Below are positions 847-27,547 of a stretch of DNA of 28,230 bases, in pieces (the stretch's first letter is position 1; each line of letters starts with the position of its first letter). Both the position numbers and the translations under genes were made by a program. The stretch spans positions 1 to 28,230 of IMG/VR virus record IMGVR_UViG_3300025425_000121. One strand, 5' to 3'. Below the pieces are notes generated by a model. That model worked only from the letters and a program-made list of their open reading frames with translations. It made no database searches and was not told where the DNA came from. The DNA is from a virus.

Positions 847-1401
847 ATGGACGCCTTTGTATACTCTTTAACAAATCAAAATAATGGAAACAAATATGTT
901 GGATACCATAAAGGGTCTGAGCATGATGGTTACATTTGTTCCTCTAAATCTGAAAGATTTTGGGCTGATTACGAAAAGGACGACTTTACCAGACAGATTA
1001 TTGCTAAAGGTACTGTAGAGGAGTGTGTTGCTTTAGAACTGAAAATACTTCAAAATATTGATTTAACAAGTGATGAGTGGTATAATAATTCTGCTGGCGG
1101 CGGTATTATTTTTACAAAAGAAGTTAGAGATAAAATGTCTAAATCTATTGCTTTATCTCATAAAACAAGAACTCATTATGCAAGTGGTTGGAAAGGAAGC
1201 GACCAAATGAGGAAGAAATTGAGTATAGCCCAGAAAAGTTTCGCTGCCTCTTTAACAAAGGAAGAAAGAAAAAAACATTATTTACATAAGAACAATCCAC
1301 ACAAACAAAATAATTCAATTACAGAATGTCCTAATTGTGGAAAAAAAGGACAATATAGAGCCATGAAAAGATGGCACTATGATAATTGTAGAGAGATATA
1401 A
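847..1401 (+). CDS. Free-standing GIY-YIG-type homing endonuclease with zinc finger (between genes 13 and 14)
   Basis: A 184-residue protein with a diverged GIY-YIG nuclease domain at residues 4-88: VYS (5-7) replaces GIY, YVG (17-19) replaces YIG, glutamates lie near 60-64, and YNNSAGGG (79-86) matches the usual YN-x(2-4)-GG end of the domain. Residues 92-130 hold two NUMOD3-like DNA-binding repeats (RDKMSKSIALS, RKKLSIAQKS). The C-terminus is a zinc finger with C161, C164, H177 and C181, common in phage homing endonucleases. The gene has a good AAGGA site and ends in TAATG, sharing one base with gene 14. Its role is presumably to cut the junction in endonuclease-free relatives and spread itself. 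It is not a virion gene despite its position. The degenerate GIY motif leaves activity uncertain. Confidence 0.85.
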   Translation: MDAFVYSLTNQNNGNKYVGYHKGSEHDGYICSSKSERFWADYEKDDFTRQIIAKGTVEECVALELKILQNIDLTSDEWYNNSAGGGIIFTKEVRDKMSKSIALSHKTRTHYASGWKGSDQMRKKLSIAQKSFAASLTKEERKKHYLHKNNPHKQNNSITECPNCGKKGQYRAMKRWHYDNCREI

Positions 1402-3843: not shown

Positions 3844-4278
3844 ATGAGTAATATTGATGATAAGTTAAATGAAGTACTAAACATCGCTGAAGAAGTACTA
3901 GAATCAAAAGAAGAAAAGAATCCTTTAGAGATAGTAAAAGATAAACCTGTTGTAATTGCACCAGATAATGATGTAGAAGCAGACTTTGAAACTGGTAGAG
4001 GAGAACTTTATAAGTTATTAGAAAAAGGTAATGAAGCAATAGACGGAATACTTGCATTAGCAAAAGAAGGTGAGCATCCTCGTGCATATGAAGTGGCAGG
4101 TCAGCTAATCAAAACTCAAAGTGAGATTGCACAAAATCTATTAGACTTACAAGATAAATTAAAAAAGATTAAAGATGTAAAAGGTGAGAGTCCAAAAAAT
4201 GTGACTAATGCCTTATTTTTAGGAAGCACAACCGAATTACAAAAAATGTTAAAGAATAATAAGGATAAAAAATCCTAA
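3844..4278 (+). CDS. 16: Small terminase subunit gp16
   Basis: 144 residues, a little shorter than T4 gp16 (164). The small terminase forms a ring that recognises concatemeric DNA and regulates the gp17 motor. The protein is helix-rich and highly charged. The central stretch (GRGELYKLLEKGNEAIDGIL, about residues 49-68, then HPRAYEVAGQLIKTQSEIAQNLLDLQDKLKKI) is the conserved core of this family in marine T4-like phages and would form the coiled-coil oligomerisation region. It is preceded by an AAGG about 12 bases upstream and followed by gp17 after 29 bases. The name rests on sequence pattern and position. Confidence 0.88.
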   Translation: MSNIDDKLNEVLNIAEEVLESKEEKNPLEIVKDKPVVIAPDNDVEADFETGRGELYKLLEKGNEAIDGILALAKEGEHPRAYEVAGQLIKTQSEIAQNLLDLQDKLKKIKDVKGESPKNVTNALFLGSTTELQKMLKNNKDKKS

Positions 4279-4307: not shown

Positions 4308-5183
4308 ATGAGTGAAGAACAAAAATCCTATCTCGGAAATCCGAACCTCAAGAAGGCACATACTAAATCACGATTTACTCCTAAACAAGTAGATGAAGTG
4401 ATGAAGTGTTTAGAGAATCCTAAATATTTCATAGAACACTATTTAAAAATTGTTACCATTGATAAAGGTCTAGTACCTTTTGAGATGTATGACTTTCAGC
4501 GGAAGATGGTAGATACTTTTCACGACAATAGGTTTACGATATGTAAATTACCTAGACAGAGTGGAAAGTCAACTATCATTGTCTCCTACCTCTTACATTA
4601 CGTTTTGTTTAACGATAATGTGAATGTTGCAATACTCGCCAACAAATCTTCTACGGCAAGGGATTTACTAGGGCGATTGCAACTTGCTTACGAATACTTG
4701 CCGAAATGGATGCAACAAGGCGTACTCAACTGGAATAAAGGATCACTTGAATTAGAAAACGGAAGTAGAATCGTTGCGGCTTCAACTTCATCAAGTGCTG
4801 TTCGGGGAAGTACTTTTAATATTATATTTCTTGATGAGTTTGCATATGTACCTAATAATATAGCTGAAGAATTTTTTAGTTCAGTATATCCTACAATTTC
4901 ATCTGGTAAAACATCAAAGGTTATGATTGTATCTACACCTCACGGAATGAATATGTTTTATAAGATGTGGATGGATGCTGTTAATAAGAAAAGTACTTTT
5001 AAACCTATTGAAGTACATTGGTCAGAAGTACCTGGTCGTGATGAGGCATGGAAAGAACAAACAATTAAAAATACAAGTGAGTCACAGTTTCAAACCGAGT
5101 TTGAATGTGTTTATGGTGATACAATGGTTGAAACAGAAGATGGTAAAATAAAAATAGAAGATTTATATAAAAGGTTGGCATAA
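4308..5183 (+). CDS. 17: Large terminase gp17, N-terminal half (ATPase) fused to a 25-residue N-intein
   Basis: A 291-residue product: residues 1-266 are the N-extein (terminase ATPase) and 267-291 the N-terminal part of a split intein. ATPase motifs visible are Walker A PRQSGKST (82-89), Walker B NIIFLDEFAY (171-180) and the coupling motif VSTPHG (208-213), as in T4 gp17, the motor that packages DNA into the prohead. The extein stops at FQTEFE, directly before Cys267. The intein part starts CVYGDTMVETEDGK, a classic block A, and ends at a TAA that overlaps the ATG of the next gene. The missing nuclease half is encoded there. Protein trans-splicing would join 266 and 283 residues into a 549-residue terminase. 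Confidence 0.95.
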   Translation: MSEEQKSYLGNPNLKKAHTKSRFTPKQVDEVMKCLENPKYFIEHYLKIVTIDKGLVPFEMYDFQRKMVDTFHDNRFTICKLPRQSGKSTIIVSYLLHYVLFNDNVNVAILANKSSTARDLLGRLQLAYEYLPKWMQQGVLNWNKGSLELENGSRIVAASTSSSAVRGSTFNIIFLDEFAYVPNNIAEEFFSSVYPTISSGKTSKVMIVSTPHGMNMFYKMWMDAVNKKSTFKPIEVHWSEVPGRDEAWKEQTIKNTSESQFQTEFECVYGDTMVETEDGKIKIEDLYKRLA

Positions 5184-5494
5184 TGTTTAGAACTAATACA
5201 AATAATATAAAAATATTAAGTCCAAATGGATTTTCTAATTTTAATGGTATTCAAAAGGTTGAAAGAAACCTTTATCAACACATTATCTTTGATGATGATA
5301 CTGAAATAAAAACTTCCATTAATCATCCTTTTGGTAAAGATAAAATATTAGCAAGAGATGTAAAAGTAGGAGATTATTTAAATAGTAAAAAGGTATTATA
5401 TAATGAGTTGGTTAATGAAAATATATTTTTATATGATCCTATAAATGTAGAAAAAGAAAGTTTATATATTACTAATGGTGTTGTTTCTCATAAT
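5106..5494 (+). mobile_element. Naturally split intein in the large terminase (25-aa N half, 104-aa C half)
   Basis: N half: codons 5106-5180, from catalytic Cys1 through block A (GDTMVETEDGKIKIEDLY). C half: codons 5183-5494, 104 residues from its own ATG, with block B TSINHPF containing the conserved T-x(3)-H, block F ESLYITNGVV, and the terminal SHN with penultimate His and last Asn. The +1 extein residue is Cys (5495-5497). Joining the exteins restores TEFE-CEFLGS, which reads through the terminase without a gap. The break lies after only 25 residues, far from the usual endonuclease insertion site, and there is no endonuclease domain. From memory the lengths and residues match the AceL-TerL intein described from Ace Lake metagenome data. 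I could not run a search to confirm identity. Confidence 0.95.
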
Positions 5495-6346
5495 TGTGAA
5501 TTCTTAGGTAGTGTTGATACACTTATCAATGCACAAAAATTAAAAACAATGGCTGTCGTAGACCCAAAAAGAAGTCCAGGTGGACTAGATGTTTACGAAA
5601 TGCCAATAAAAGATCATACTTATGTCATCACAGTTGATGTCGCAAGAGGTGTTCAAAATGATTACTCTGCTTTCGTAGTTGTTGACTCAACGCAGGCGCC
5701 ATATAAAATTGTCGCAAAGTATAGGAACAATGATATTAAACCTATCGTGTTTCCTAACATATTAAAGAAAGTAGCGGATCATTATAATAAGGCATATGTT
5801 CTTATAGAGATAAACGATTTAGGACAACAAGTAGCAGACGCAATGCAATTTGAACTAGAATACGATAACATGATGATGGTTACACAAAGAGGTCGTGCAG
5901 GTCAAGTATTGGGTGGCGGCTTTAGTGGTAGAGGTAATCAACTAGGCGTGAGAATGACTAAAGGTACTAAAAAAATTGGAACTTCAAATCTAAAAAGTCT
6001 GATAGAAGGTGATAAGCTAATCATTAATGACTTTGATATTATTTCAGAACTATCAACATTTATTTCAAAAGGTAAATCTTTTGAAGCTGAAACGGGTTCG
6101 CATGACGATTTAGTAATGTGTCTAGTTATCTTTTCTTGGTTGGCTAACCAAAGATACTTTAAAGAATTAACAAATGTTGATGTACGAGGTCAAATGTTTA
6201 CAGATCAAAAGAACGCAATTGAGGCTGACATGGCACCTTTTGGGTTTATAGACAACGGATTAGACGATCCTGAGGGGTTAGATAATGGATATTTTGATGA
6301 CGCAGGTGTGTTGTGGCAGCCTGTCACTTATCGTAAAGGCGAATAG
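5183..6346 (+). CDS. 17: 104-residue C-intein fused to large terminase gp17, C-terminal half (nuclease)
   Basis: A 387-residue product: residues 1-104 are the C-terminal part of the split intein, and 105-387 the C-extein beginning Cys105-EFLGS. The extein is the RNase H-fold headful nuclease of gp17, which cuts the DNA concatemer. Acidic residues expected at the metal site are visible in VITVDVARG (D152), in LIEINDLGQQ and in SHDDLVMCL. Its ATG overlaps the stop of the N-terminal gene (TAATG) and there is no independent ribosome-binding site beyond an AAAAGG at 5169-5174, so production of the two halves is probably coupled. The intein stretch is visibly richer in A and T than the terminase around it. 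Confidence 0.95.
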   Translation: MFRTNTNNIKILSPNGFSNFNGIQKVERNLYQHIIFDDDTEIKTSINHPFGKDKILARDVKVGDYLNSKKVLYNELVNENIFLYDPINVEKESLYITNGVVSHNCEFLGSVDTLINAQKLKTMAVVDPKRSPGGLDVYEMPIKDHTYVITVDVARGVQNDYSAFVVVDSTQAPYKIVAKYRNNDIKPIVFPNILKKVADHYNKAYVLIEINDLGQQVADAMQFELEYDNMMMVTQRGRAGQVLGGGFSGRGNQLGVRMTKGTKKIGTSNLKSLIEGDKLIINDFDIISELSTFISKGKSFEAETGSHDDLVMCLVIFSWLANQRYFKELTNVDVRGQMFTDQKNAIEADMAPFGFIDNGLDDPEGLDNGYFDDAGVLWQPVTYRKGE

Positions 6347-6362: not shown

Positions 6363-6370
6363 TATAAATA
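6363..6370 (+). promoter_or_regulatory. T4-type late promoter for the sheath gene
   Basis: A perfect TATAAATA, the T4 late -10 element read by the gp55 sigma factor. It lies in the 80-base gap between genes 17 and 18. The predicted start at about 6376 gives a 50-base leader containing the palindrome TTAATTAATTAA (6403-6414) and an AAGGAG site (6413-6418) nine bases before the ATG at 6427. Confidence 0.8.
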
Positions 6371-20288: not shown

Positions 20289-20804
20289 ATGGAAAAAACA
20301 AAAGCAAAACTGAAACCACATTATGTAGATAATAAGAAGTTTTTAGTTGCTATGATAGAACACAGAGAAAAAGTCCAGAAGGCAGAAGACAAGAAACGAA
20401 AAGCACCAATGGTGACTAACTATATAGGTGAGTGTTTTTTGAAGATCGCTAATCACTTATCTTACAGACCGAATTTTATAAACTATACTTATCGTGATGA
20501 CATGATATCAGACGGTATAGAAAACTGTTTACAGTACATGAGAAACTTCAACCCAGAGAAATCTAGTAACCCATTTGCATACTTCACACAGATTATATAT
20601 TATGCATTTATTCGTAGAATACAAAAAGAAAAGAAACAGCAAGATGTTAAGGCTAAACTAATTGCAAGTTCTGGTACTGAAATGATGTTAGATACATTAA
20701 CTGGCGATGACGCTCAATATAAAAATCAGATGTTAGAGTTTTTACAAAGAAATGTATTGCCAAGTGAACCGAAAGAACCAAAAAAAGTGAAGAAGAAAAA
20801 GTAA
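20289..20804 (+). CDS. 55: Late-transcription sigma factor gp55
   Basis: 171 residues (T4 gp55 has 185). A minimal sigma70-family protein that directs RNA polymerase to TATAAATA late promoters. Region 2 is visible: NYTYRDDMISDGIENCLQYM (about 65-84), RNFNPEKSSNPFAYFTQIIY and AFIRRIQKEKKQQ, matching the sigma pattern of DL-x(n)-G, F-x(n)-AYFT and I-R-R. In T4 the C-terminus binds the sliding clamp through a hydrophobic-acidic motif; here the protein ends in a strongly basic tail (EPKEPKKVKKKK), with QMLEFLQ just before. Four perfect TATAAATA boxes in this window have the right placement to be its targets. Confidence 0.92.
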   Translation: MEKTKAKLKPHYVDNKKFLVAMIEHREKVQKAEDKKRKAPMVTNYIGECFLKIANHLSYRPNFINYTYRDDMISDGIENCLQYMRNFNPEKSSNPFAYFTQIIYYAFIRRIQKEKKQQDVKAKLIASSGTEMMLDTLTGDDAQYKNQMLEFLQRNVLPSEPKEPKKVKKKK

Positions 20805-20808
20805 TTAT

Positions 20809-21888
20809 ATGCTAATCGCCCTGCTAAATGATACTCACTTTGGTGTGAGAAACGATAGTATGATTTTTGATGACTTTCTACATAAGTTCTATGAAGAAGT
20901 ATTTTTTCCATATGTGGATAAACATAATATCAAAACACTTATTCATTTAGGTGATGTAGTTGATAGAAGAAAATATATTAATTTTAGAGTTGCTGATAAC
21001 TTTAAAAAGAAGTTCTTACAGAAACTATGGGATAAGAAGATTGATACTCATATCCTTATAGGTAATCACGATATCTATTTCAAGAATACAAACAGCGTAA
21101 ATGCATTACAACAGTTATGTACTGCACCTGACGGTGTCAACGAGCCTTGGATATACGAAGAACCTAAAGTTGTAAACTTTGATGGTCTTGATATATTAAT
21201 GCTACCTTGGATAAATCCTGAAAATCAAGAACATTCATTTAATATGTTAAATACAGCAAAGGCAGATGTTTGTATGGCACACCTAGACTTAAATGGTTTC
21301 TTTATGCATGAGAACATAACACAAACGCACGGTTACGATAAGAGTATTGTAAAAAGATTTGAGAAAACAATCTCAGGACATTTTCATTCTAAAAGTGATG
21401 ATGGTCAGATATTCTATTTAGGTGCTCAATATGAAATGACATGGTCAGATTACGGTCAAACAAAAGGGTTTCATATATTTGATACTGATACGAGAGAGTT
21501 AGAGTTTATACTTAATCCTAATACTATATTTGAAAAGTTAATGTACAATGATACAGAAACAAACTATGATAATTTTGATATAAGTTCTCTACATAATAAA
21601 TTTGTGAAACTTATAGTTGTCAGTAAGAAAAACAATGAGATGTTTGATAGATTGCTTGATAGATTATATAATAAAATAACTGTACACGAGTTAAAGATAT
21701 TAGAAGATTACTCCGATCTAAACGCCAACCTAGTAAGTGATGATGTTGCTGACGGCACAGAAGATACAATGACACTTGTAAATAACTTTGTAGATCAATT
21801 GCCTGTTGATTTAGATAAGAACAAATTAAAGAGTATGATTAAAGAAACATTTTTAGAGGCACAAGATACGGATATACCAATCAAATGA
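20809..21888 (+). CDS. 47: Recombination endonuclease subunit gp47 (Mre11/SbcD-like)
   Basis: 359 residues (T4 gp47 has 339). The metallophosphoesterase nuclease of the gp46/47 complex, which resects DNA ends for recombination-dependent replication and degrades host DNA. Metal-binding motifs in order are LNDTHFG (6-12), HLGDVVDRR (46-54), IGNHD (84-88), MAHLD and ISGHFHSKS (the H-x-H end motif). The C-terminal part is helical, with LDRLYNKITVHELKILEDYS. It starts four bases after gene 55 and overlaps the MT-A70 gene by four bases (ATGA). Its partner gp46 follows after that inserted gene. Confidence 0.95.
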   Translation: MLIALLNDTHFGVRNDSMIFDDFLHKFYEEVFFPYVDKHNIKTLIHLGDVVDRRKYINFRVADNFKKKFLQKLWDKKIDTHILIGNHDIYFKNTNSVNALQQLCTAPDGVNEPWIYEEPKVVNFDGLDILMLPWINPENQEHSFNMLNTAKADVCMAHLDLNGFFMHENITQTHGYDKSIVKRFEKTISGHFHSKSDDGQIFYLGAQYEMTWSDYGQTKGFHIFDTDTRELEFILNPNTIFEKLMYNDTETNYDNFDISSLHNKFVKLIVVSKKNNEMFDRLLDRLYNKITVHELKILEDYSDLNANLVSDDVADGTEDTMTLVNNFVDQLPVDLDKNKLKSMIKETFLEAQDTDIPIK

Positions 21889-22418
21889 TATCATTACCAA
21901 ATAAAAAATACAACATAATCTATGCTGATCCGCCTTGGCACTTTAAACATTGGAACGATAAAACCGTAACAAGAAAAGTGCCCTATGATATAATGTCAAA
22001 AGAAGAAATTTATAATTTACCAGTTCAAGATATTGCAGATAAAGATTGTATGCTATTTTTGTGGGTAACTTTTCCAAAATTACTTGAAGGAATAGAAACA
22101 ATAAATAAATGGGGTTTCACTTACAAAACTTGTGGATTTAATTGGATTAAAAAAAATAAGAAAGCTGATAGTTTTTTTTGGGGTTTGGGATATTGGACAA
22201 GAAGTAATAGTGAACTTTGTTTGATAGGCACTAAAGGAAAACCAAAACGAAAATCAATGGGAGTTCATCAAGTTGTTTATGAAAGAATTAGAGAACATAG
22301 TAGAAAACCAGATAGAATAAGAAATGATATAATAGAACTATGTGGTGATCTACCTAGAATAGAATTATTTGCTAGACAAAAAACTAAAGGATGGGATGTG
22401 TGGGGTAATGAAGTATGA
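21885..22418 (+). CDS. MT-A70-type DNA adenine methyltransferase between genes 47 and 46
   Basis: 177 residues, N6-adenine methyltransferase of the MT-A70 family. The catalytic DPPW is at 15-18 (IIYADPPWHF). Family landmarks follow: PYDIMSKEEIYNLPVQDIAD, MLFLWVTFPKLLEGIETI, WGFTYKTCGFNWIKK, LGYWTRSNSELCLIGTKGKP and KPDRIRNDIIELCGDLPRIE followed by LFARQKTKGWDVWGNE, the usual C-terminal end. It overlaps both neighbours by four bases (ATGA at each end), so it is fully integrated in the recombination operon. Likely role is methylation of phage DNA against restriction, or marking of DNA that gp46/47 should not resect; the latter is speculation. No cognate restriction enzyme is seen. Confidence 0.93.
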   Translation: MISLPNKKYNIIYADPPWHFKHWNDKTVTRKVPYDIMSKEEIYNLPVQDIADKDCMLFLWVTFPKLLEGIETINKWGFTYKTCGFNWIKKNKKADSFFWGLGYWTRSNSELCLIGTKGKPKRKSMGVHQVVYERIREHSRKPDRIRNDIIELCGDLPRIELFARQKTKGWDVWGNEV

Positions 22419-24127
22419 TACATTTTAAAAAGATAAGATATAAAAACTTTCTATCAACAGGTCAACAGTTTATAGAAGTACAACTAGATAGGTCATCTAA
22501 GACATTGGTTGTTGGTGAAAATGGTGCCGGTAAATCAACTATGCTAGACGCATTATGTTTTGGTCTATTTCAGAGAGCATTTAGAAATATTAAAAAAGAT
22601 CAGATGGTCAATAGTATCAATGAGAAAGATTGTGTGGTAGAGGTAGAGTTTCTAATCGGTCAGAATGAATATAAGATTATTAGAGGTATCAAGCCTAACA
22701 TTTTTGAGATATGGTGTAATGGTATAATGTTAAATCAAGACGCTGCCGTAAGAGATTATCAAAAACATTTAGAAACAACAATATTAAAACTAAACTTTAG
22801 ATCATTCACACAGGTTGTTATATTAGGTAATGCCTCGTTTGTTCCTTTCATGCAATTAAGTTCCAGACATAGAAGAAATGTTGTAGAAGAAATACTAGAC
22901 ATAGAGATATTTTCTAAAATGAATTTCATGCTTAGAACAAAAGTTCAGGCACAAGATGAATTAATCAAACAATCAGATTTTAATTCTCAACTAATAGAAG
23001 GTAAGATAGATTCTCAAAAGAAACACATAGAAGATTTAAGTGGTAACAATCAACAATTCATTGATAAGAAAAAACTAGAGATACAAAAAGCACAGACAGA
23101 CATAGATAACTATCAATTAGATATAGACAGAGTATCTGCTGAGAAGATTGCTTTACAGAATGAGATAATAGATGAAACTAAAATCAATAACAAGTATAAA
23201 CAACTTCATAATATGGAGGCTAAGTTAGAAAATACTTGTAGTAAACATAAGAAAGACTTGAAGTTCTTTGAAACTCATAACGATTGTCCTACTTGTCAAC
23301 AAACTATTGATGAGGCATTTAAAACAAGTATAATTGATAAGAAGAGGAACAAGGTTGTTGAGATTGATAGTGCTATGGGTCAGTTAGTGAAAGAGATTAC
23401 AACTACTGAAACTAGATTATCAAAGATCAATGAAACAATGGTTGCCATAAGAGAGAAAGAGTTATTAATTAATAGATACGAAACATCTATATCAGAAATA
23501 AATAAATATATCATTGATAAACAGAATGAGATAGATGAGTTATCAGATGACAAGTTTACAACAGGTGTTGCAACCGGTCAACTTACAGAATTACAAGAAC
23601 AACTGACAGAGGCAGAGTCAACTAAAGTTAAACAAAAAGAACATAAGATTTACCTAGATACTGCACGATATCTTATGCAAGATACAGGTATCAAGACAAA
23701 GATTATTAAACAATATCTGCCAATAATGAATCAATTTATTAATAAGAACCTAGCAGATATGGATTTCTTTGTTAATTTTACACTTGATGAGGAGTTTAAT
23801 GAAACAATTAAATCTAGGCACCGTGATGTGTTTAACTATAATTCATTTAGTGAAGGTGAGAAGTTAAGAATAGACTTGTCAATACTATTTACTTGGCGAG
23901 AGATTGCTAAGATGAAAAACTCTATGAATACAAATCTATTAATATTAGATGAAATATTTGATAGTTCATTAGACGCTTCAGGTACAGATGAGTTTATGAG
24001 AATACTAACCAACAAACTAGCAAAAGAAAATGTTTTTGTTATTTCACACAAGGGCGATACTTTAATAGATAAATTTCCCTCAATTATTAGGTTCGAGAAA
24101 TATAAAAACTTTACAAGGATGGCATAA
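22415..24127 (+). CDS. 46: Recombination endonuclease subunit gp46 (Rad50/SbcC-like)
   Basis: 570 residues (T4 gp46 has 560). An SMC-type ATPase partner of gp47. Walker A is VGENGAGKST (33-42), the Q-loop region contains FRSFTQVVILGNASFVPFMQ, a zinc hook CPTC (C291 and C294) sits at the apex of a long coiled coil (about 170-440), the ABC signature is FSEGEK (478-483), and Walker B is NLLILDEIFD (about 507-516), then VISHKGD. All required residues are present. It is coupled by ATGA to the methyltransferase upstream and by one base (TAATG) to the deformylase downstream. Confidence 0.96.
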   Translation: MIHFKKIRYKNFLSTGQQFIEVQLDRSSKTLVVGENGAGKSTMLDALCFGLFQRAFRNIKKDQMVNSINEKDCVVEVEFLIGQNEYKIIRGIKPNIFEIWCNGIMLNQDAAVRDYQKHLETTILKLNFRSFTQVVILGNASFVPFMQLSSRHRRNVVEEILDIEIFSKMNFMLRTKVQAQDELIKQSDFNSQLIEGKIDSQKKHIEDLSGNNQQFIDKKKLEIQKAQTDIDNYQLDIDRVSAEKIALQNEIIDETKINNKYKQLHNMEAKLENTCSKHKKDLKFFETHNDCPTCQQTIDEAFKTSIIDKKRNKVVEIDSAMGQLVKEITTTETRLSKINETMVAIREKELLINRYETSISEINKYIIDKQNEIDELSDDKFTTGVATGQLTELQEQLTEAESTKVKQKEHKIYLDTARYLMQDTGIKTKIIKQYLPIMNQFINKNLADMDFFVNFTLDEEFNETIKSRHRDVFNYNSFSEGEKLRIDLSILFTWREIAKMKNSMNTNLLILDEIFDSSLDASGTDEFMRILTNKLAKENVFVISHKGDTLIDKFPSIIRFEKYKNFTRMA

Positions 24128-24840
24128 TGACAGAAAAACTAACACCAGAGAAAATAGAAGAAATCGCTAAGAATTTTGAGAACATACAAAGTGGTAAAGT
24201 TCCTTTAATCAAAAGTGAAAAAGAAGAAATTAAACTAGACTATGGTAGTTTAGATCAATTAAGACCTGAAGATAAACCAAAGGCACCAGAGAAAAGATTA
24301 CTGCCTTTAATACCACCTAGTGATCCTAGATTGTTAATGCAAATTGCACCATTCATAGATGACACTTTGAAAGAGTTTGATTTCAAAGATAGAGTTGATC
24401 TATCAAAAGTAATGTATGATAGTATGGTTAAATATGGTGGACTTGGATTATCTGCTAATCAAGTAGGACTACCGTATCGTATGTTTATCATGGGTGGACA
24501 TCCTCAGATAGAAAACGGTAAATTAAGATCAGTTTTTAATCCATTAATTAATGATGTTAGCGAAGAAACAGTAAACTTCAAAGAAGGCTGTTTGTCTTTT
24601 CCATTCTTATTCTTATCTATCAATAGACCTAAGTGGTGTTCTGTAAAATATACAGATCAACATGGGAAAGAGATAGAAGAAACTTTACATGGTATGCCAG
24701 CAAGAATATTTCAACATGAAAACGAACACATGAACGGATATGTATTTACTGATCTAGTGAGTAAGTTTAAACTAGAACTTGCTGAAAAGAAAAGAATAAA
24801 AATGATAAAAGAGTTTACAAGGAATAGAACAATAAGATAA
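24127..24840 (+). CDS. def: Peptide deformylase with N-terminal extension
   Basis: 237 residues, longer than typical bacterial deformylases (about 170). The enzyme removes formyl groups from new proteins. The three signatures are present: GLGLSANQVG (105-114), EGCLSFP (153-159) with the metal-binding Cys, and QHENEH (196-201) giving the HExxH motif, with Asn-Glu in place of the common Ile-Asp or similar. Residues 1-55 form an added charged stretch (KSEKEEIKLDYGSLDQLRPE) absent from standard enzymes. Phage-encoded deformylases are known in marine phages; why they are kept is unsettled. The start overlaps the gene 46 stop, and the next gene overlaps its stop. Confidence 0.93.
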   Translation: MTEKLTPEKIEEIAKNFENIQSGKVPLIKSEKEEIKLDYGSLDQLRPEDKPKAPEKRLLPLIPPSDPRLLMQIAPFIDDTLKEFDFKDRVDLSKVMYDSMVKYGGLGLSANQVGLPYRMFIMGGHPQIENGKLRSVFNPLINDVSEETVNFKEGCLSFPFLFLSINRPKWCSVKYTDQHGKEIEETLHGMPARIFQHENEHMNGYVFTDLVSKFKLELAEKKRIKMIKEFTRNRTIR

Positions 24841-25411: not shown

Positions 25412-25440
25412 TTGACCAGGACAATCATCTATGATATAAT
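25412..25440 (+). promoter_or_regulatory. Sigma70-like promoter with extended -10 before a methyltransferase
   Basis: TTGACC (25412-25417), 17 bases, TATAAT (25435-25440) preceded by TGA, nearly the full consensus. The predicted start (25446-25448) coincides with the ATG at 25448, so the transcript would be leaderless. The TGATATAAT block is identical to those at 17151 and 20253. Confidence 0.8.
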
Positions 25441-25447
25441 AGTACAT

Positions 25448-26080
25448 ATGATAAAGAATTTATATATTGAAGACTGTTTAAAGACATTAGAACGAAAACT
25501 TGATTATGATTATGTAGTTACCTCACCACCTGATTTTGATGAGTTAAAAAAAGACACTAAAGATAGTAGTTGGACTTACTTAGATTTTATAAATTCTTTC
25601 GCTAAAGAGTTGAATCCTAAAGGCAACTTTGTTTCAATATGCATTAGTGATAGAAAGAGTCAAGGTCAAGTCATATCAAAATCTTCAATAGTAATAGAAG
25701 CGTTTAAAAGTTTAAAATACACTTTACATACCCACAAGATATGGGTTAAATCAATAAACACAGATATGTTCAGAATGAATTATCAACATTTATTAACTTT
25801 CAGTAGAAACAGCTATAGAAGAAAATTAATTAATGATTTTAGACCAGATGTTTTTGTTATCAATCAATCAAAATGGAATAATTACAGTTATGGTATGCCT
25901 GTAAGAATAATAGAATTACTTGTAAAAAATTATACAGATAAAGATGATATTGTTTATGATCCTTTTATGGGATCAGGAACGACAGCTGAGGCTTGCGTTA
26001 ATACTAATAGACAATGGATAGGTTCAGAAATAAATGAAGAATATGCTAAAGAATCTATGGAAAGAATAAAATCACTATGA
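25448..26080 (+). CDS. DNA methyltransferase with C-terminal SAM motif and unusual SPPD catalytic box
   Basis: 210 residues from the ATG at 25448. The frame is open upstream to TTG 25412, but that stretch is the promoter. Beta-class layout: catalytic box VVTSPPDF at 23-30 and SAM-binding motif DPFMGSGTTAEAC at 171-183, followed by WIGSEINEEYA. The catalytic box normally reads S/D/N-PP-Y/F/W; here Asp follows SPP, with Phe one place later. The TSPP form is typical of N4-cytosine enzymes, but the base cannot be deduced. It may have altered activity. It overlaps the next gene by four bases. Confidence 0.85.
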   Translation: MIKNLYIEDCLKTLERKLDYDYVVTSPPDFDELKKDTKDSSWTYLDFINSFAKELNPKGNFVSICISDRKSQGQVISKSSIVIEAFKSLKYTLHTHKIWVKSINTDMFRMNYQHLLTFSRNSYRRKLINDFRPDVFVINQSKWNNYSYGMPVRIIELLVKNYTDKDDIVYDPFMGSGTTAEACVNTNRQWIGSEINEEYAKESMERIKSL

Positions 26081-26358: not shown

Positions 26359-26462
26359 TAAAAATTATAAAAACTATGATATATGATTTATTAAACGAAC
26401 CTTTAATTTTAGCTATAATAATTGTATTCATAACATTAATAATATTAAACCTTGCTATATGA
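26355..26462 (+). CDS. Tiny single-span membrane peptide (35 aa)
   Basis: An open frame of 35 codons linked by ATGA overlaps to the membrane protein before it and the methyltransferase after it. It starts MIKIIKTMIYDLLNEP, then one strongly hydrophobic segment LILAIIIVFITLIILNLAI to its end. Positive charges precede the segment, so the C-terminus would face out if inserted. The exact fit between two overlapping genes argues for real translation. It could also serve chiefly to couple translation of its neighbours. Function unknown. Confidence 0.55.
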   Translation: MIKIIKTMIYDLLNEPLILAIIIVFITLIILNLAI

Positions 26463-27547
26463 CAGACGAATTAATTTTACAACAAGTACATGATGAATGG
26501 AAACAAAGAGGTTTCCCTTACTATCCTAAAGATAAGAAATGGCGTGATAACATATTCAATCAGTTAGTAAATTTCAAAAGAGATACCTTAGTCGATAGAA
26601 AGAATAAGATCATAGGTCAAGCCGCACATGGTCTTAATCTTGCATGGTCTTATATGGAACATTCATGGGGAATCAAATGTGGTAAGATGAAGACACCTAT
26701 GGAGATATGGCATGATGAAAAACATCTTAAAAAAGGATTAAACAAAATACTAACAGGTACTTTCTTTACTAAAAAAGCAGCACATTCAATTACAGAATCA
26801 GATATGCGATCTATGTTAAGAAGATACACAGGTACTCAAATGGTTTCTAACTTTAGACCTACGGCGGCCGCAGCAATGTATGATATCTTTGTAGATAAAG
26901 AAAGTCCACTTGAAGGCACAGAGGCAGGTACAGTATGGGATCCTAGTATGGGTTATGGTGGTAGACTATTAGGGGCGATATCTGCTGGCGTTAATTACAT
27001 AGGTACTGATCCTTGTATACCTACATACGAAGGATTAGAAAAGATTAGAGATGAGTATGGTCACAAACATCTATCATATACATTATTAAGACAAGGTAGT
27101 GAAACATACATACCTGAAGATAACTCATTAGACTTTGTATTCACAAGTCCACCTTACTTTGGTTGGGAAGCATATGGCGATGAGCCAGAACAATCAAGTA
27201 TTAAGTTCTCTACAAGTGATATGTGGAGAGAGAAGTTTTTACTTCAAACTATTAAGAACGCTTATAAAGGTCTTAAATCAGATAAGTTCTTAGGATTGAA
27301 CGTTGCAAATACAAAACAATATAAAACGTTTGAAGAGGATACAGTTGATCTTGCTAAACAAGCAGGGTTTACACATACAGATACATGGTGGTTATCATTA
27401 TCTACACAACAAGGCGGTTCTGCCGTTTCTACATTAGACGGAGATATTACTGAAACTAAACAGAAACAACAATATATGGGTGAATACAAAAGACCAGATG
27501 TATCAGGTCGTAAGTTTGAACCTGTTTTTATATTCAAAAAGTGTTGA
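26459..27547 (+). CDS. DNA methyltransferase with TSPPY box and N-terminal extension
   Basis: 362 residues. The SAM-binding motif (VWDPSMGYGGRLLGA, 159-173) comes before the catalytic TSPPY (229-233, then FGWEAYGDEPEQ), the opposite order to the enzyme at 25448. Residues 1-150 are an extension of unknown fold (WKQRGFPYYPKDKKWRDNIF; AHGLNLAWSYMEHSWGIKCG) that may recognise DNA. SMGYGG departs from the common F-x-GxG motif but keeps the glycines. The modified base cannot be deduced; it could be adenine-N6 or cytosine-N4. This type occurs in marine T4-like phages. It overlaps the 35-residue peptide by four bases and is followed by a terminator-like hairpin. Confidence 0.85.
   Translation: MTDELILQQVHDEWKQRGFPYYPKDKKWRDNIFNQLVNFKRDTLVDRKNKIIGQAAHGLNLAWSYMEHSWGIKCGKMKTPMEIWHDEKHLKKGLNKILTGTFFTKKAAHSITESDMRSMLRRYTGTQMVSNFRPTAAAAMYDIFVDKESPLEGTEAGTVWDPSMGYGGRLLGAISAGVNYIGTDPCIPTYEGLEKIRDEYGHKHLSYTLLRQGSETYIPEDNSLDFVFTSPPYFGWEAYGDEPEQSSIKFSTSDMWREKFLLQTIKNAYKGLKSDKFLGLNVANTKQYKTFEEDTVDLAKQAGFTHTDTWWLSLSTQQGGSAVSTLDGDITETKQKQQYMGEYKRPDVSGRKFEPVFIFKKC

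What the first reader, a model, noticed from the sequence alone, without database searches (positions are those of the whole stretch)
5106..5494. Atypically split intein interrupting the large terminase of a T4-like phage
Block A with Cys1 ends at a stop codon after only 25 residues. The remaining 104 residues, with the block B T-x(3)-H, terminal His-Asn and +1 Cys, start the next gene. The two exteins join without loss into a full terminase of 549 residues. From memory this matches the described AceL-TerL intein (25 + 104 residues, Ace Lake metagenome), so the intein is probably known, but here it is placed in its surrounding phage genome. Packaging, and so virion production, would depend on protein trans-splicing.
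Basis: partly seen in the sequence, partly recalled or inferred. Interest (0 to 1): 0.85.

Follow-up and report, generated by a model that had tools for sequence, protein, structure and literature searches.

The report
Split intein left by endonuclease loss
A virus of bacteria has its DNA-packaging motor gene cut in two by a known self-splicing element (AceL-TerL), and comparison with related viruses indicates that the cut is a scar left when a selfish DNA-cutting gene was deleted from inside it; sister viruses deleted the same gene in another register and carry the element in one piece.

Summary
Two other assemblies give identical DNA. The joined exteins (549 aa, 62.2 kDa) align without a gap to intein-free TerL of Pelagibacter phage HTVC008M. 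Size, host gene and nucleophiles match published AceL-TerL, so the intein is known.

New here is its setting. In a scan made with the C-half alone, 77 of 79 scorable contigs show a homing-endonuclease gene (HEG), or its tail, between the intein halves. The window allele equals such an allele minus about 609 nt, keeping 14 nt of the HEG's 3' end. Seven HEG-less alleles have seven different junctions; one is in frame, giving a contiguous intein in three assemblies. Intein DNA is 91-97% identical where the exteins are only 66-86%, so the element moves laterally.

In 44 of 45 HEG alleles the 20 nt before the HEG's T4-type late promoter match terL best exactly at the intein insertion site. This is the I-TevI operator layout, so autorepression is predicted. 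Trans-splicing in the phage and repressor binding are inferred, not shown.

The parts
4308..5105 (+). TerL N-extein (266 aa, ATPase domain)
   Evidence: Terminase_6N 4.9e-23; phrog_5989 8.9e-62; aligns to HTVC008M TerL
5106..5180 (+). IntN, 25 aa, Cys1 at 5106-5108; stop TAA 5181-5183
   Evidence: translation; 80% identical to the start of the contiguous L003 intein
5169..5182 (+). Scar: 14 nt (1 mismatch) shared with the 3' end of the HEG in L002; it supplies the last IntN codons (L, A), part of the stop and the ribosome-binding region of the next gene
5170..5174 (+). AAAGG, Shine-Dalgarno-like, 8 nt before the ATG of the C-terminal gene
   Evidence: sequence; function inferred
5183..5494 (+). 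IntC, 104 aa, own start codon overlapping the IntN stop (TAATG); block B TSINH, C-terminal SHN
   Evidence: CatC 6dsl E = 6.5e-41
5495..6343 (+). TerL C-extein (283 aa, RNaseH-like nuclease domain), Cys+1 at 5495-5497
   Evidence: Terminase_6C 5e-17; T4 gp17 structures
3844..4278 (+). Terminase small subunit, upstream neighbour
   Evidence: phrog_445 4.2e-43
6363..6370 (+). TATAAATA, T4-type late promoter box before the tail sheath gene; one of five in the window, all on the + strand (also 10536, 13158, 15724, 18131)
20289..20804 (+). gp55-type late sigma factor, which would read TATAAATA promoters
   Evidence: phrog_234 8.3e-60

Best explanation
The window holds the AceL-TerL split intein (or an allele indistinguishable from it) in its phage genome. 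Two overlapping genes are translated separately; IntN (25 aa) and IntC (104 aa) associate, form one HINT fold and ligate the terminase halves through Cys1 and Cys+1 into a 549-aa packaging ATPase-nuclease. The split arose because a homing endonuclease gene (GIY-YIG type, in one sister HNH type) once lay between the halves. Deletion of about 609 nt, probably at A-runs shared by the two sides, removed the gene, its late promoter and a homing-site copy in front of it, and left 14 nt of its 3' end, which now give IntN its last residues and stop and provide the translation start region of the second gene. Sister phages lost the gene at other junctions; one loss was in frame and restored a contiguous, presumably cis-splicing intein. 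In HEG-bearing relatives the element spreads between phages by cutting empty terL genes, and the copy of the terL site beside the HEG's late promoter most likely acts as an operator by which the endonuclease represses itself, as with I-TevI. Shown: sequences, junctions, identities, positions. Inferred: splicing in the phage, cleavage of terL by the HEG, repression.
For: Anatomy and reading frames; two further identical assemblies. HEG between the halves in L002, L007, L010, L021, L023, L024 with homing-endonuclease family matches. A HEG-based scan gave 144 hits; nearly all of the 75 loci profiled from it carry terL split at the same site. The scan made with IntC alone gave 67 contigs with a HEG-sized gap, 10 cut contigs whose printed translations end in the HEG C-terminus, and 2 HEG-less. 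Junctions: window = 67 nt (3 mismatches) from Cys1 plus 14 nt (1 mismatch) of the L002 HEG end in a 77-nt stretch; L157 keeps 39 nt exact of the HEG tail; L003 22 nt exact; L020 12 nt exact. Mobility: window vs L007, IntC 93.6% but exteins 72.4% and 65.9%; L020 vs L021, IntC 97.8% vs 79.1% and 70.8%; IntC dS 0.05-0.31 against N-extein dS from 0.87 to saturated. Contiguous L003 intein: model pLDDT 93.8, best fold match CatC 6dsl then gp41-1. Operator: the 20 nt before the late promoter match terL best at the intein site in 44 of 45 alleles, register -4 or -3; TATAAATA in 42 of 45 against 66 of 4937 background windows that include those 42; I-TevI precedent in PMC2988022.
Against: No experiment on this phage. 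The published AceL-TerL letters could not be compared by tool, and IMG sample names are not shown, so Ace Lake origin is not tested. L004, L189 and L009 keep little or no HEG tail, so their route is less certain. The consensus operator alone is not unique in 13.5 kb of HTVC008M DNA; the case rests on per-allele, position-specific matches, and the alleles are related, so 44 of 45 is not 44 independent trials. The contiguous alleles rest on assemblies with A-runs at the junction, although three contigs agree.
Confidence: 0.87

Rival explanations
1. The short split allele (or the contiguous one) is ancestral and the HEG inserted into it later in the sister phages.
For: The HEG stop codon lies inside the IntC start, so a HEG that inserted upstream could have acquired its last residues from pre-existing intein DNA.
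Against: HEG-less alleles are two of 79 in the IntC-based scan and otherwise cluster inside one clade whose outgroups carry the HEG; L020 is sister to HEG-bearing L021 with support 100/99. L157 keeps 39 nt of HEG coding sequence. The HEG C-terminal W and V are invariant in the six aligned HEGs from divergent groups.
Confidence: 0.08
2. The stop and restart are a sequencing or assembly frameshift in a contiguous intein.
For: Closely related contigs (L003, L006, L011) have one open frame, and homopolymer indels do occur in some contigs (L011, L028).
Against: Two other contigs are 100% identical across the junction. The contiguous alleles differ by 16 nt, not by one base. The 25 + 104 intein was characterised as split (PMC11766414).
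Confidence: 0.01
3. The halves are joined during translation by a frameshift at TATAAAAGG, giving a contiguous intein rather than a trans-splicing pair.
For: The IntC frame is open upstream from 5171 (KVGIMFRT...), so a shifted ribosome would make a product much like contiguous L003.
Against: TATAAAAGG is not a canonical slippery heptamer. The C-half has its own ATG with an AAAGG 8 nt upstream. AceL-TerL fragments are reported to trans-splice (PMC11766414).
Confidence: 0.03
4. The homing-site copy before the HEG promoter in relatives is a passive relic of how the HEG was captured and has no regulatory role.
For: No binding data; a relic would show the same resemblance.
Against: It is kept, in the same register, in alleles whose endonucleases are only 45% identical, directly against an invariant late promoter box, and it is absent from the HEG-less window type, L003, L004 and L020.
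Confidence: 0.25

Closest known systems
AceL-TerL split intein (Thiel et al. 2014, doi 10.1002/anie.201307969; listed in PMC11766414)
   Same: 25 + 104 residues, Cys1 and Cys+1, large terminase host, atypical split near the N-end
   Different: No difference found. The published letters are not held, so identity was not tested; the phage context and HEG-deletion origin are what is added here
GOS-TerL (Bachmann and Mootz 2015) and the consensus intein CatC (6dsl)
   Same: Same family and atypical split; CatC is the best sequence and fold match
   Different: GOS-TerL is 37 + 115 with Ser1 (PMC11766414); Cat is engineered
Fractured genes: split inteins with a HEG between the halves (Dassa et al. 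2009; AceL-NrdHF in PMC7891396)
   Same: HEG-bearing relatives L002, L007, L021 and others have this arrangement
   Different: The window allele has lost the HEG; L003, L006 and L011 lost it in frame and are contiguous; L007 has an HNH nuclease domain on the same C-terminal part that L002 joins to a GIY-YIG-type one
I-TevI operator over a late promoter in the td intron (Edgell et al. 2004, reviewed in PMC2988022)
   Same: Homing-site-like DNA at a TATAAATA late promoter directly before the endonuclease gene
   Different: Here inside a split intein rather than a group I intron; binding and repression untested; lost in the window allele

Membership tests
Class 1 split intein | Cys1, block B T-x(3)-H, C-terminal His-Asn, Cys+1 | tested here: met
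Class 1 split intein | Intein halves on two separate ORFs whose exteins join without loss | tested here: met
Class 1 split intein | HINT fold | tested here: met
   IntC matches 6dsl; contiguous sister L003 modelled at pLDDT 93.8 and matches inteins. The window pair itself was not modelled
Class 1 split intein | Trans-splicing activity | not testable with these tools
   reported for AceL-TerL in PMC11766414
AceL-TerL | 25 + 104 residues, TerL host, Cys1/Cys+1 | tested here: met
AceL-TerL | Letter-for-letter identity and Ace Lake origin | not testable with these tools
   published sequence not held; IMG sample names not shown; identity only from memory
Fractured gene with HEG between intein halves | HEG present between the halves | tested here: not met
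   absent in the window; present in relatives
I-TevI-like autoregulated HEG (relatives only) | Homing-site-like sequence at the late promoter before the HEG | tested here: met
   44 of 45 and 42 of 45 alleles; not in the window, which has no HEG
I-TevI-like autoregulated HEG (relatives only) | Endonuclease binds the site and represses the promoter | not testable with these tools
   needs a gel shift or reporter

The most novel reading that the evidence does not exclude
Natural atypically split inteins of the TerL family are remnants of HEG-carrying fractured genes. Deletion of the HEG repeatedly leaves either a permanently split pair (window) or, when in frame, a re-fused cis-intein (L003 type). 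While present, the HEG is controlled by a copy of its own terL target placed at a late promoter, so the I-TevI style of autorepression extends to endonucleases inside split inteins.
Probability: 0.72. Interest if true: 0.68.

Novelty: already known. Interest (0 to 1): 0.52.

Why it matters
AceL-TerL and its consensus Cat are protein-labelling tools whose odd split site had no explanation that I know of; here it follows from where a HEG sat. The allele series (HEG-bearing, HEG-less split, HEG-less contiguous) shows an intein leaving the split state, which makes that route directly testable with natural pairs. The homing-site copy at the late promoter names the predicted endonuclease target and predicts self-repression, both simple to test.

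Tried and rejected
A first idea that the pre-HEG element was a 28-nt extein copy with a 12-nt deletion was dropped: its second half (ACTTATAAAT) is the late promoter box, not extein. Single-sequence folding of the L003 intein failed (pLDDT 29) and was redone with an alignment. No IntC relative in genome contigs. No relative of the L002 HEG in INPHARED phages. The consensus operator scanned over HTVC008M was not unique, so per-allele tests were used instead. The label count is not used because L007, which has an HNH-type HEG, was put in the HEG-less group by mistake; only the topology is cited. Frameshifts in L011 and L028 were put down to homopolymer errors. The TAATG arrangement as an assembly error was rejected.

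Full report
Observation. The window carries terL as two overlapping ORFs, 4308-5183 and 5183-6346, with TAATG at 5181-5185. The first ends in a 25-residue IntN beginning with Cys1, the second begins with a 104-residue IntC ending in SHN followed by Cys+1. Removing the intein gives 549 residues, 62.2 kDa, 68.6% identical to intein-free HTVC008M TerL with no gap at the splice point. IntC matches CatC, the consensus engineered from this intein family, at 6.5e-41. Two other contigs are 100% identical to the window across the junction. The window is a 28,230-base virus record with T4-type genes: small terminase, sheath, portal, major head protein and a gp55-type late sigma factor.

Known identity. 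PMC11766414 lists AceL-TerL with 25 and 104 residues, Cys1/Cys+1 and a cold optimum, citing Thiel et al. 2014. The published letters are not in the library, so identity was not tested; from memory it is the same sequence. The intein in the window is therefore treated as known.

Relatives. Scans of IMG/VR with IntC found alleles in several states. L002, L021 and L010 types have a GIY-YIG-type HEG between the halves, L007 an HNH-type one. The window type, L004, L020 and L009 are split without a HEG. L003, L006 and L011 have one open frame through IntN and into IntC. HEG identity rests on homing-endonuclease families for L002 and L010 and on HNH_3 for L007. L002 and L007 share their C-terminal part (77% over residues 84-195 of L002) but not the nuclease part (alignment). 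A HEG-based scan gave 144 relatives, of which the best 80 were kept, and nearly all of the 75 loci profiled are terL genes split at this site. Because that scan is biased towards HEG carriers, a second was made with IntC only: 67 contigs have a HEG-sized gap, 10 are cut but show the HEG C-terminus in the printed translations, 2 (L157, L189) are HEG-less, 1 could not be scored.

Origin of the split. Each HEG-less allele was compared with its nearest HEG-bearing relative. The window stretch of 77 nt from Cys1 to the IntC ATG is covered by 67 nt from the IntN side (3 mismatches) and 14 nt from the L002 HEG 3' end (1 mismatch), overlapping in A residues; L002 has 686 nt there, so about 609 nt are missing. 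L003 is covered by 73 nt and 22 nt exact (30 with one mismatch) of L007; L020 by 68 nt and 12 nt exact of L021; L157 keeps 39 nt exact of the HEG tail of L165. L189 and L004 keep little or none, L009 none. The seven HEG-less alleles have seven different junctions, so repeated loss is likely; microhomology at A-runs is an inference. HEG-bearing alleles surround the HEG-less ones in the IntC tree, with L020 sister to HEG-bearing L021 at 100/99. The start region of the C-half gene lies in the HEG 3' end, which may be why deletions tend to keep it (inference).

Re-fusion. L003, L006 and L011 have 93 nt from Cys1 to the IntC ATG, a multiple of three without a stop, giving a contiguous intein of 135 residues. 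An alignment-based model has pLDDT 93.8 and a HINT fold whose best matches are CatC and gp41-1. L011 carries a one-base homopolymer deletion further on, probably an error.

Mobility. Intein DNA is far more similar than the flanking exteins: window vs L007 93.6% (IntC) against 72.4% and 65.9%; L002 vs L007 96.5% against 71.9% and 68.7%; L020 vs L021 97.8% against 79.1% and 70.8%. IntC dS is 0.05-0.31 where N-extein dS runs from 0.87 to saturated. This is the signature of lateral spread.

Operator-like element. All 45 distinct HEG alleles examined have, between the IntN stop and the HEG start, a sequence of the type TGTGAGTTTTTTGGATTATAAATA. TATAAATA is the T4 late-promoter box (established knowledge); it is present exactly in 42 of 45, against 66 of 4937 background windows that include those 42. 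It occurs five times in the window itself, all on the + strand and each shortly before a gene. When the 20 nt before the box are slid along the joined terL of the same phage, on both strands, the best match (ties allowed) is the intein insertion site in 44 of 45 alleles, always in register -4 or -3. The alleles are related, so this is not 44 independent events, but alleles with endonucleases only 45% identical keep it. I-TevI has the same layout, with 15 of 20 identities between homing site and operator at a late promoter, and was shown to repress itself (PMC2988022). Self-repression is therefore the favoured reading and a passive relic the rival. The element is absent from the window because it went with the HEG.

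Verdict. The finding is real and the intein already known. The surroundings explain the atypical split as a HEG-deletion scar, show a natural return to a contiguous intein, and suggest an I-TevI-like control of the HEG in relatives. Splicing in the phage, cleavage of terL and repression remain to be shown.

Noticed in passing
L131:1890-3953 and L134:1901-3964: A first intein near Walker B of terL is one open frame through an HNH endonuclease ORF encoded in another frame (L131:2563-3324): 0 stops over 254 codons, 15.5 expected on permuting synonymous codons, none of 2000 permutations open. Apparent dual coding of an intein and its endonuclease.
   Followed up: partly
L079:985-5067: terL in three pieces: a split intein at Walker A with a 348-aa ORF between its halves, plus the split intein at the window's site, so two trans-splicing steps would be needed.
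   Followed up: partly
L120:2047-3945: terL with an apparently contiguous, LAGLIDADG-like intein at Walker A as well as the HEG-bearing split intein at the window's site.
   Followed up: no
L041:846-3062 (Vibrio phage VP-1): N-extein, IntN and a GIY-YIG endonuclease form one annotated ORF, with IntC on the next.
   Followed up: partly
L042:1007-3856 (Yersinia phage TG1): terL annotated as two genes split near Walker B by an intein with a TnsA-like or endonuclease-I-like ORF in between.
   Followed up: partly
L043:2504-3832 (Campylobacter phage CPX): IntC plus terminase C-half next to unrelated neck and portal genes; the N-half presumably lies elsewhere in the genome.
   Followed up: no
window 847-1401 and 2149-2736: Two further GIY-YIG-type endonuclease genes just upstream of the terminase genes.
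   Followed up: partly
window 21885-22418, 24127-24840, 25412-26080, 26459-27547: Three methyltransferase-like genes and a peptide deformylase.
   Followed up: no
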